The position numbers and the translations under genes were made by a program. The notes beneath the pieces are model-generated. The model had not been told where the DNA came from and did no database searches. It saw nothing but the letters and a program-made list of their open reading frames with translations. From Actinomycetota bacterium (GTDB lineage: Bacteria > Actinomycetota > Acidimicrobiia > Spongiisociales > ZC4RG35), in assembly GCA_019347585.1 (NCBI GenBank), contig JAHWLC010000021.1:1-10229 (forward strand): a DNA stretch of 10,229 bases, given 5' to 3'. Position 1 is the stretch's first letter, and every line of letters begins with the position of its first letter. Below are positions 9,344-10,229 of the stretch, piece by piece.

Positions 9344-9381
9344 TAATTCCCTTGACGGACGCTGGTGTCGTCGGCGATGAT
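9344..9381 (+). promoter_or_regulatory. Predicted whiB7 promoter with AT-rich box upstream of the -35
   Basis: TTGACG at 9352-9357 is a good -35. GATGAT at 9376-9381 (4 of 6 matches to TATAAT) follows with an 18-bp spacer. TAATT at 9344-9348 lies three bases upstream of the -35. In mycobacteria WhiB7 activates its own and its target promoters by its AT-hook contacting an AT-rich element just upstream of the -35, so the placement suggests autoregulation. Expected start point near 9388. In GC-rich surroundings the AT-rich box stands out. Confidence 0.6.
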
Positions 9382-9406
9382 GACCGGGTCGAGAAGAGGT
9401 ACGTCT

Positions 9407-9520
9407 ATGAGGATGCGGTTGCTGAACACGAATCCCGCCCAGGCGGAATTCTGCAGCCGCGTCCCTTTCCAGGTGCCGGCAATGCAGGGCACCGCACCAC
9501 GGCGGCCTCTCGTCAGCTGA
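9407..9520 (+). CDS. Leader peptide (upstream ORF) of the whiB7 attenuator, 37 codons
   Basis: The short ORF starts at ATG 9407 with MRMRLLNTNPAQAEF and ends in TGA at 9518-9520. It has the best Shine-Dalgarno in the window: AGAGG at 9395-9399, seven bases before the ATG. This contrasts with the SD-less genes around it and argues that it is really translated. It lies between the predicted promoter and an intrinsic terminator, upstream of the whiB7-like gene. Its last codons (32-35) contain a segment complementary to the terminator's 5' arm, so the ribosome's position on it could decide whether the terminator forms. Upstream ORFs in this position are known for whiB7 in Mycobacterium and wblC in Streptomyces. 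I do not recognise the peptide itself. In-frame ATGs at 9377 and 9380 fall before the predicted transcription start. Confidence 0.6.
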   Translation: MRMRLLNTNPAQAEFCSRVPFQVPAMQGTAPRRPLVS

Positions 9521-9552
9521 TCTGACGCCGATCGCTCTTCACGAGGCCGCCG
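9500..9552 (+). promoter_or_regulatory. Candidate antiterminator of the whiB7 leader
   Basis: RNA segment 9500-9509 (CGGCGGCCTC) is perfectly complementary over 10 bp to 9543-9552 (GAGGCCGCCG), which includes seven of the eight bases of the 5' arm of the downstream terminator. The loop between them contains a second perfect 6-bp hairpin, 9511-9516 with 9522-9527, whose loop spans the upstream-ORF stop codon. The two structures (antiterminator and terminator) are mutually exclusive. A further hairpin, 9472-9477 with 9488-9493, precedes them. Confidence 0.6.
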
Positions 9553-9575
9553 GAGCACCCGGCGGCTTTTTGTTT
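9546..9575 (+). terminator. Intrinsic terminator in the whiB7 leader
   Basis: An 8-bp perfect GC stem, GCCGCCGG at 9546-9553 and CCGGCGGC at 9559-9566, with the 5-nt loop AGCAC, is followed directly by TTTTTGTTT. This is a classical rho-independent terminator on the plus strand. No annotated plus-strand protein gene ends before it, because the upstream gene is on the other strand. It can only terminate the leader RNA starting near 9388, about 185 nt long, so it acts as a premature terminator for whiB7, whose ATG is 33 nt further on. Confidence 0.88.
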
Positions 9576-9608
9576 GCCGCTTTCGATCACGAAGAGACAG
9601 GTTTCGAC

Positions 9609-9917
9609 ATGAGTTTGCAACAGATACAACAAGACGGGCGATGTAGGGAGGAGGGGAGCCACGGGCTCTTCTTCTCCGACGACCCTGCGGAGCTGGCCGA
9701 GGCGCAGGGCATCTGTGCCCGCTGCGCCGTGAGGGTGAAATGTCTAGAGGTCGCCCTGGAGGAGCGCATGGAATGGGGGGTCTGGGGTGGCGTCATCTTC
9801 TGGGACGGCGATCCGTTTCACCGGAGACGGGGCCGGGGTCGACCCAAGCGGTCCGAGGCCGACCTTCCGCTGGAGGCCGACAGGAGAGAGCTGCTCGAGG
9901 TGGTCGCGTCGGCTTAG
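9609..9917 (+). CDS. whiB7: WhiB7-type Fe-S transcription factor with AT-hook
   Basis: The protein has 102 residues. It has the four WhiB cysteines for a [4Fe-4S] cluster, Cys12, Cys36, Cys39 and Cys45 (CxxCx5C for the last three), then EWGVWGG at 55-61, then GRGRPKR at 75-81. The last is an AT-hook (RGRP core) in the position seen in WhiB7, which distinguishes this subclass from other Wbl proteins. WhiB7 binds domain 4 of the principal sigma factor and activates intrinsic antibiotic-resistance genes through AT-rich sites next to the -35. The ATG at 9609 is chosen over TTG at 9570, because the latter lies inside the terminator T-tract; a weak CAGG Shine-Dalgarno sits 7 nt upstream. Unlike mycobacterial WhiB7, about 21 mostly acidic and hydrophobic residues follow the AT-hook. 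The stop overlaps that of the convergent sigma gene. WblC is the Streptomyces name. Subclass assignment is strong but from motifs only. Confidence 0.85.
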   Translation: MSLQQIQQDGRCREEGSHGLFFSDDPAELAEAQGICARCAVRVKCLEVALEERMEWGVWGGVIFWDGDPFHRRRGRGRPKRSEADLPLEADRRELLEVVASA

Positions 9918-10229
9918 CCGGCGGCGAGCTCGCGGAGCCCGCCGGGATTGGACGGGTGACGCATCTTGGCCAGGGCCTTGGCCTCGATCTGACGGATGCG
10001 CTCCCTGGTGACGCTGAAATGCTTGCCGACCTCGTCGAGGGTCGCCGGCTCGCGATCGCCCAAGCCGTAGCGCATCTCGATGATGGTGCGCTCCCGCTCG
10101 GTCAGCCTGTCCAGGACGAACCCCAGGTTCTCGATGTTCAGCTTCGAGGCGATCAGCTCGAAGGGGGCGGTGGCATCGATGTCCTCGATGAAATCGCCCA
10201 GAGTGGCATTGTCCTCACCCACCGGCTCG
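9914..10229 (-). CDS. rpoD: Principal sigma-70 factor, C-terminal part (partial, runs off the right edge)
   Basis: Only the last 104 complete codons are present, reading in from the right edge on the minus strand and ending in TAA at 9914-9916. The sequence covers the region 3.2 linker (EPVGED and then LGDFIED, the sigma finger), region 4.1 (LTERERTIIEMRYGL) and the region 4.2 helix-turn-helix (TLDEVGKHFSVTRERIRQIE) that reads the -35 hexamer. It ends ALAKMRHPSNPGGLRELAAG. This pattern is that of the essential housekeeping sigma (RpoD, called SigA or HrdB in actinobacteria). The HPS tripeptide near the end corresponds to the His-Pro pair of mycobacterial SigA that contacts WhiB proteins. The gene is convergent with the whiB7-like gene and overlaps it by 4 bp. 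The GTG at 10222 is internal, not the start. Confidence 0.93.
   Translation of the reverse strand, partial: EPVGEDNATLGDFIEDIDATAPFELIASKLNIENLGFVLDRLTERERTIIEMRYGLGDREPATLDEVGKHFSVTRERIRQIEAKALAKMRHPSNPGGLRELAAG

What the first reader, a model, noticed from the sequence alone, without database searches (positions are those of the whole stretch)
9344..9608. A complete ribosome-sensing attenuator upstream of a WhiB7-type resistance regulator
Seen: promoter, strong-SD 37-codon upstream ORF, an alternative RNA pairing and an intrinsic terminator, all on the plus strand and all before the whiB7 ATG. The terminator has no other plus-strand gene to serve. Known: whiB7 in Mycobacterium and wblC in Streptomyces are controlled by an upstream ORF and a conditional terminator that is read through when ribosome-targeting antibiotics disturb leader translation. 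Inferred: the same logic operates here in a lineage that does not look mycobacterial or streptomycete, with what seems to be an unrelated leader peptide. If so, antibiotic sensing by whiB7 leaders is older or more convergent than these two genera show.
Basis: partly seen in the sequence, partly recalled or inferred. Interest (0 to 1): 0.85.

Follow-up and report, generated by a model that had tools for sequence, protein, structure and literature searches.

The report
Ribosome-sensing RNA switch before whiB7
A short leader in front of an antibiotic-response regulator gene in an actinobacterium related to the class Acidimicrobiia looks like a switch that ends transcription when ribosomes run well and lets it through when they stall; this kind of switch is already known in relatives, and here it is followed through a further class of the phylum.

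Summary
Window 9345-9608 carries an AT-rich box, a promoter, a Shine-Dalgarno-led 37-codon upstream ORF (9407-9520), an intrinsic terminator (9543-9575) and a 10-nt perfect complement between the end of the ORF (9500-9509) and the terminator's 5' arm. The gene downstream is WhiB7-type. Relatives are mostly Acidimicrobiia MAGs. By a fixed score the layout is found in 32 of 39 leaders of the order and 71 of 114 overall, against 3 of 6,840 shuffles. A covariance model of 13 leaders, blind to the protein, gave 54 full-length hits at E<=0.01 in 198 genomes of the class; 51 lie directly upstream of a WhiB7-profile match (42 of 45 outside training). The upstream frame is kept (22 of 22 against 1.9 expected) while its amino acids drift, so ribosome progress rather than a peptide seems to be read. 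[quoted passage not shown] New here are its mapping in Acidimicrobiia, weak model hits as far as Streptomyces-like genomes, and a variant without a U-tract. No expression data were available.

The parts
9345..9348 (+). AATT box 3 nt upstream of the -35; position of the AT-rich WhiB7/WblC site in mycobacteria and Streptomyces
   Evidence: AT-rich stretch before TTGAC in 31 of 39 promoters printed; pattern AATTNNCTTGAC occurs once in the own genome (76% complete), here; role elsewhere from PMC3905903 and PMC7157823
9352..9381 (+). promoter: -35 TTGACG 9352-9357, -10 GATGAT 9376-9381; start of transcription inferred near 9388
   Evidence: relatives
9394..9399 (+). Shine-Dalgarno AAGAGG of the upstream ORF
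   Evidence: sequence
9407..9520 (+). upstream ORF, 37 codons, MRMRLLNTNPAQAEFCSRVPFQVPAMQGTAPRRPLVS*
   Evidence: frame kept in 22 of 22 lineages against 1.9 expected
9500..9509 (+). arm A (CGGCGGCCTC), antiterminator strand inside the last codons of the upstream ORF
9511..9527 (+). small hairpin CGTCAG-CTGAT-CTGACG around the stop codon; role unknown
   Evidence: weak support
9543..9553 (+). arm B (GAGGCCGCCGG), shared by antiterminator (with arm A) and terminator
9543..9575 (+). intrinsic terminator hairpin (9543-9569) with T-rich tail (9567-9575)
   Evidence: compensatory changes across 25 leaders
9609..9917 (+). whiB7 (WhiB7/WblC-type regulator, 102 aa): four cysteines, GVWGG, RGRGRPKR AT-hook-like tail

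Best explanation
It is the 5' leader attenuator of a whiB7/wblC gene in an Acidimicrobiia-related bacterium. RNA polymerase starts near 9388 and a ribosome loads on the upstream ORF. If the ribosome reaches the stop codon (9518-9520) it covers arm A, so arm B is free to pair with the terminator's 3' arm and transcription ends near 9571-9575. If a drug or starvation holds the ribosome back early in the ORF or keeps it off, arm A pairs with arm B as soon as B is made, the terminator cannot form, and whiB7 is transcribed; WhiB7 then boosts its own promoter through the AATT box. Shown by sequence and comparison: the parts, their conservation and their spacing. Inferred: start of transcription, termination, read-through, the inducer and the autoregulation.
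For: Layout: 32 of 39 order leaders and 71 of 114 overall reach the score, 3 of 6,840 shuffles do. Geometry: 36 of 39 order leaders have a terminator 18-37 nt after the uORF stop, and the A duplex ends within -3 to 16 nt of the stop. uORF frame 22 of 22 against 1.9 expected. Own arms fit better than swapped arms: -18.95 against -14.90 kcal/mol over the 80 of 114 leaders where uORF and terminator could be picked without using A:B, 0 of 5,000 permutations; also in the 42 leaders outside my first hand-chosen set, and in the order alone (35). Terminator stem: 7 of 10 pairs with changes on both sides in 25 leaders, 0 of 500 shuffles. Protein-blind model: 51 of 54 class hits upstream of a WhiB7-profile match; 17 of 17 family hits at E<1e-4 upstream of whiB7, 13 of them training rows. 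Stepwise folding shows the A:B helix at lengths 9550-9560, before the 3' arm is complete. Same mechanism described for whiB7 in actinobacteria (PMC10727445, passages).
Against: No transcript data. At equilibrium the terminator, not the antiterminator, is the predicted fold of 9500-9575 and of the full leader, free and under all six ribosome positions I masked, so read-through would have to be kinetic. Within the family the A:B arms hardly vary and show no covariation above shuffles. Allowing for the peptide, A:B is stronger than synonymous recodings at the 5% level in only 9 of 36 leaders, median fraction 0.14. The swap test does not remove differences in base composition between genomes. Rows were chosen for having a terminator, which favours paired cells. 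In 3 of 39 order leaders the hairpin lacks a U-tract, and 7 of 39 (L035-L041) lack the TTGAC promoter pattern.
Confidence: 0.86

Rival explanations
1. A plain terminator with an incidental ORF: the hairpin simply lowers whiB7 expression and no ribosome is sensed.
For: The terminator is the minimum-energy fold in every state tested, and the peptide is not conserved.
Against: An SD-led frame to the same stop is kept in 22 of 22 lineages against 1.9 expected, and arm A fits its own arm B.
Confidence: 0.06
2. A codon- or peptide-specific sensor: one drug class or amino acid is sensed through particular codons or an arrest peptide (for example the FC-containing stretch shared by some relatives).
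For: A shared EFC or QFC stretch in 6 leader peptides of the window's family (L001, L004, L005, L007, L008, L012); in mycobacteria alanine starvation induces whiB7 (as cited in PMC10727445 and PMC11550727, passages read).
Against: Substitutions at codon positions 1, 2, 3 are 152, 155, 177 over 23 pairs (overlapping pairs, so not independent), with 253 nonsynonymous and 68 synonymous codon changes: no sign of peptide constraint over the whole ORF. The RNA arm inside the last codons may blur this count.
Confidence: 0.12
3. Translational rather than transcriptional attenuation: the downstream hairpin controls ribosome access to whiB7.
For: In L019, L020 and L034 (one sister family) the hairpin has no U-tract and stands beside the whiB7 ribosome-binding site.
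Against: In the window the terminator has a T-rich tail and ends about 40 nt before the gene; 36 of 39 order leaders have a terminator.
Confidence: 0.06

Closest known systems
whiB7/wblC uORF attenuator of Mycobacterium and Streptomyces (Lee, Lee and Roe 2022, not held, known to me by citation and recall; described in passages read of PMC10727445, PMC11550727, PMC13393426 and PMC4128351)
   Same: AT-rich box and promoter, SD-led uORF, terminator, antiterminator formed by uORF and terminator sequences, before an orthologous gene
   Different: Different leader peptide and arm sequences; shorter leader (about 220 nt from the inferred start to the gene here, about 350 nt in the two mycobacteria of PMC4128351); Acidimicrobiia; models from this family do not recover the Mycobacterium-like leaders
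Ribosome-mediated attenuators of resistance genes in Firmicutes (vmlR, bmrCD, msrD; titles and starts of abstracts seen in listings)
   Same: Works alike: leader translation decides between alternative RNA structures
   Different: Different genes and phylum; no homology tested
Amino-acid attenuators (for example ilvB1 of Mycobacterium, PMC13236596, passages read)
   Same: Same logic of ribosome position and alternative hairpins
   Different: Those carry a run of regulatory codons; by eye no such run is evident here

Membership tests
whiB7/wblC leader attenuator | Lies directly before a WhiB7/WblC orthologue | tested here: met
   Solved WhiB7 is the best structure-sequence match of the orthologue profile, E 4.6e-19; PF02467; cysteines, GVWGG and GRP of the tail invariant in 23
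whiB7/wblC leader attenuator | SD-led uORF within the leader | tested here: met
   9407-9520; kept in 22 of 22 lineages
whiB7/wblC leader attenuator | Rho-independent terminator between uORF and gene | tested here: met
   36 of 39 in the order; compensatory changes
whiB7/wblC leader attenuator | Antiterminator from overlapping uORF and terminator sequences | tested here: met
   10-bp complement; arm-swap test. As a predicted equilibrium fold it does not win
whiB7/wblC leader attenuator | AT-rich WhiB7 site immediately upstream of the -35 | tested here: met
   AATT 9345-9348; AT-rich stretch and TTGAC in 31 of 39 relatives' promoters
whiB7/wblC leader attenuator | Induction by ribosome-targeting drugs through read-through | not testable with these tools
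   needs RNA or reporter data
whiB7/wblC leader attenuator | Sequence homology of the leader to the characterised Mycobacterium/Streptomyces leaders | tested here: inconclusive
   Model R1: no whiB7 leader among its hits in the Mycobacterium- or Streptomyces-like genomes. Model R2: 9 of 96 hits in 40 genomes lie before WhiB7, 3 of them training rows, 2 Streptomyces-like at E 0.02 and 0.1, none Mycobacterium-like
Rfam families | Match to a curated RNA family | tested here: not met
   4 matches at E<=5, none relevant or near its gathering score

The most novel reading that the evidence does not exclude
The whiB7 attenuator goes back to the common ancestor of Acidimicrobiia and the other whiB7-bearing Actinomycetota, and what selection has kept since is the position of the stop codon and the two RNA arms, not the peptide: a drug-agnostic gauge of ribosome progress whose coding sequence is free to drift, with one side branch that dropped the U-tract and may have moved to control of translation.
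Probability: 0.5. Interest if true: 0.55.

Novelty: new member of a known kind. Interest (0 to 1): 0.4.

Why it matters
It places the antibiotic-sensing leader of whiB7 in a class that I do not know (recall, no call) for antibiotic producers or pathogens, which would argue that sensing ribosome trouble predates the clinical and antibiotic-producer settings in which it was found. The free drift of the peptide gives a natural experiment on whether such leaders read particular codons or only ribosome progress. The model also offers a way to find whiB7 leaders in unannotated genomes.

Tried and rejected
Covariation inside the family failed: the arms are nearly invariant, so deeper lineages were needed. 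A first terminator scan with loops up to 9 nt found terminators in 29 of 39 order leaders; loops up to 18 nt were then allowed. The score cut-off of 45 was set after seeing the scores. The 38 lineages were chosen by hand, mostly from leaders that had passed the score, so I repeated the swap test on all 80 of 114 leaders that could be picked without A:B, and on the 42 not used before; both held. The synonymous-recoding test gave weak support only. A WhiB7 regulon could not be read from the promoter pattern: in 34 family genomes it occurs 19 times, 12 of them before whiB7; the other 7 have no common theme (the reversed control pattern has 1 hit). Masked-ribosome equilibrium folds did not show the switch. 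The stop-codon hairpin has mean z -1.13 over 52 leaders (12 with fraction <=0.05) against +0.21 (3 of 52) in a control segment, but only 1 of 24 within the order, so I do not claim it. Looking for more f4 genomes gave 5 genomes and no new leader.

Rows left out: L009 and L042 (too little upstream sequence) and L089-L091 (no AT-hook by eye), before the counts. In one search, 22 of 39 order leaders were used, one per lineage by my choice, and the stop position was held at that of the uORF I had picked, so the chance figure is somewhat too low. The 26 genomes were judged by profile match and position only; their AT-hooks were not checked. The names VOC and LexA for two ORFs are by eye, from no call.

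Full report
What is there. The plus strand from 9345 to 9608 holds an AATT box, TTGACG/GATGAT hexamers (9352-9381), AAGAGG followed after 7 nt by a 37-codon ORF (9407-9520), and a hairpin with T-rich tail (9543-9575), then the ATG of a 102-residue protein at 9609. The last codons of the ORF contain CGGCGGCCTC (9500-9509), the exact complement of GAGGCCGCCG (9543-9552) in the terminator's 5' arm. Rfam has no relevant match.

The gene. The protein matches PF02467; among solved structures a profile of its relatives fits WhiB7 best (E 4.6e-19, against 2.7e-12 for the best other Wbl). Four cysteines, GVWGG and GRP of the tail are invariant in the 23 orthologues aligned. Of 149 genomes searched, 39 (own included) have a match below 1e-20; in the others the best match is weaker: fragments, more distant WhiB7-type genes or other Wbls. 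In the named collection, 33 records of this group came back: 19 titled Acidimicrobiia bacterium, 1 Acidimicrobiales, 8 just bacterium, 2 Acidobacteria, 2 Actinobacteria, 1 Actinomycetes; the window's own record was not among them. The window's genome is a 1.4 Mb, 76% complete assembly.

Conservation in the order. Forty-one upstream regions were collected, 39 long enough. With hand-picked uORFs, 36 of 39 have a terminator 18-37 nt after the uORF stop, and the A duplex ends within -3 to 16 nt of the stop. By an automatic score (terminator, SD-led uORF, A:B duplex), 32 of 39 reach 45; over all 114 leaders 71 do, against 3 of 6,840 dinucleotide shuffles. By group the count is 32 of 39 (order), 15 of 28 (other orders of the class), 10 of 16 (Mycobacterium-like), 1 of 5 (Streptomyces-like), 3 of 12 (Nocardioides and Ornithinimicrobium), 3 of 3 (f35), 3 of 3 (f38), 4 of 8 (others). 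Some misses show the layout by eye (L133 and L134), so I take these as lower bounds.

Is the uORF translated? Shuffling only the sequence between promoter and the last six codons, an SD-led frame of 15-75 codons to the same stop is expected in 1.9 of 22 lineages and seen in 22 of 22. The loci were taken because of the protein, but the stop tested is that of the uORF I had picked, which understates chance somewhat. Substitutions are spread evenly over codon positions (152, 155, 177; 23 overlapping pairs). So the frame is kept and the peptide is not.

Is the RNA pairing real? Inside the family the arms are too conserved to test: neither structure exceeds column shuffles, and the automatic consensus fold shows the terminator, not the A:B helix. 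Across 38 hand-chosen lineages own arms fit at -20.83 kcal/mol and swapped arms at -15.85 (0 of 5,000 permutations; own arm first in 9 of 38, median rank 5). Because that set was mostly chosen from leaders that had passed the score, I repeated the test on all 80 of 114 leaders where uORF and terminator could be picked without A:B: -18.95 against -14.90; one per arm-B core (34): -19.03 against -14.25; order only (35): -18.55 against -16.55; leaders not in the first set (42): -17.26 against -14.12; 0 of 5,000 permutations each time. Own arms are seldom the single best (11 of 80), and differences in base composition between genomes are not removed. The terminator stem in 25 leaders (11 order, 11 class, 3 f35) has changes on both sides in 7 of 10 pairs, 0 of 500 shuffles; those rows were chosen for having a terminator.

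Does the leader mark whiB7? A covariance model from 13 family leaders was run without protein information. In 34 family genomes the 17 hits below 1e-4 all precede whiB7 (13 are training rows); weaker hits, from E 0.0024, include chance places. In 198 genomes of the class 54 full-length hits reach E 0.01; 51 lie within 500 nt upstream of a WhiB7-profile match on the same strand, 42 of 45 outside training. Two of the three exceptions are in f4 genomes whose own whiB7 leader is the U-less variant. In 40 genomes outside the class the model hit whiB7 leaders in 4 (1 of f35, 3 of f38) and in no Mycobacterium- or Streptomyces-like genome. A second model with class-wide rows gave 96 hits in the same 40 genomes; 9 precede WhiB7, 3 of them training rows, the other 6 in f38 (2), f55, f83 and two Streptomyces-like genomes; several hits elsewhere score as well or better, for example E 1.7e-5 in G215. 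So common descent is well supported in the class and only suggested across the phylum.

How it would work. Stepwise folding puts arm A on arm B once 9550-9560 is transcribed; when the 3' arm is complete the terminator is the lower-energy state. A ribosome at the stop codon would cover arm A. This fits the published scheme: normal uORF translation gives termination, disturbed translation gives the antiterminator (PMC11550727, PMC10727445, PMC13393426; passages read). The equilibrium folds do not by themselves show a switch.

What is known. [quoted passage not shown] The primary paper (Lee, Lee and Roe 2022) is not held. A search for papers holding both whiB7 and Acidimicrobiia gave 0; that covers only the open library. 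The Wbl review PMC6282962 and PMC3905903 have no occurrence of 'Acidimicro'. I therefore file this as a new member of a known kind.

Variant. In L019, L020 and L034 (genera g21 and g31 of family f4) promoter, uORF and arm A are present but the hairpin has no U-tract and stands next to the whiB7 ribosome-binding site; a genus of the same family (L024) has the usual terminator. Folds of these leaders gave no clear switch.

Noticed in passing
window 9609-10228: whiB7 lies tail to tail with the 3' end of the principal sigma factor gene (region 4), the part of SigA that WhiB7 binds in mycobacteria (PMC3905903). By a sequence motif of that region the convergent pair is present in 26 of 37 order loci with enough sequence.
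   Followed up: partly
L019, L020, L034: whiB7 leaders whose terminator hairpin has no U-tract and sits beside the whiB7 ribosome-binding site.
   Followed up: partly
window 9511-9527 and leaders across the phylum: A short inverted repeat often spans the uORF stop codon; support is modest overall and weak within the order.
   Followed up: partly
L009 and L043 (genome G020): Two copies of whiB7 with leader near the ends of two contigs of one genome; a duplication or an assembly effect.
   Followed up: no
L200 at the AATTACCTTGAC site: The same promoter pattern with an ORF starting 44 nt after it that looks to me like a VOC-family protein; a possible WhiB7 target, from one genome only.
   Followed up: no
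G253, G138, G523: Two WhiB7-profile matches about 1 kb apart in some genomes of the class, with a leader-model hit before the second of them.
   Followed up: no
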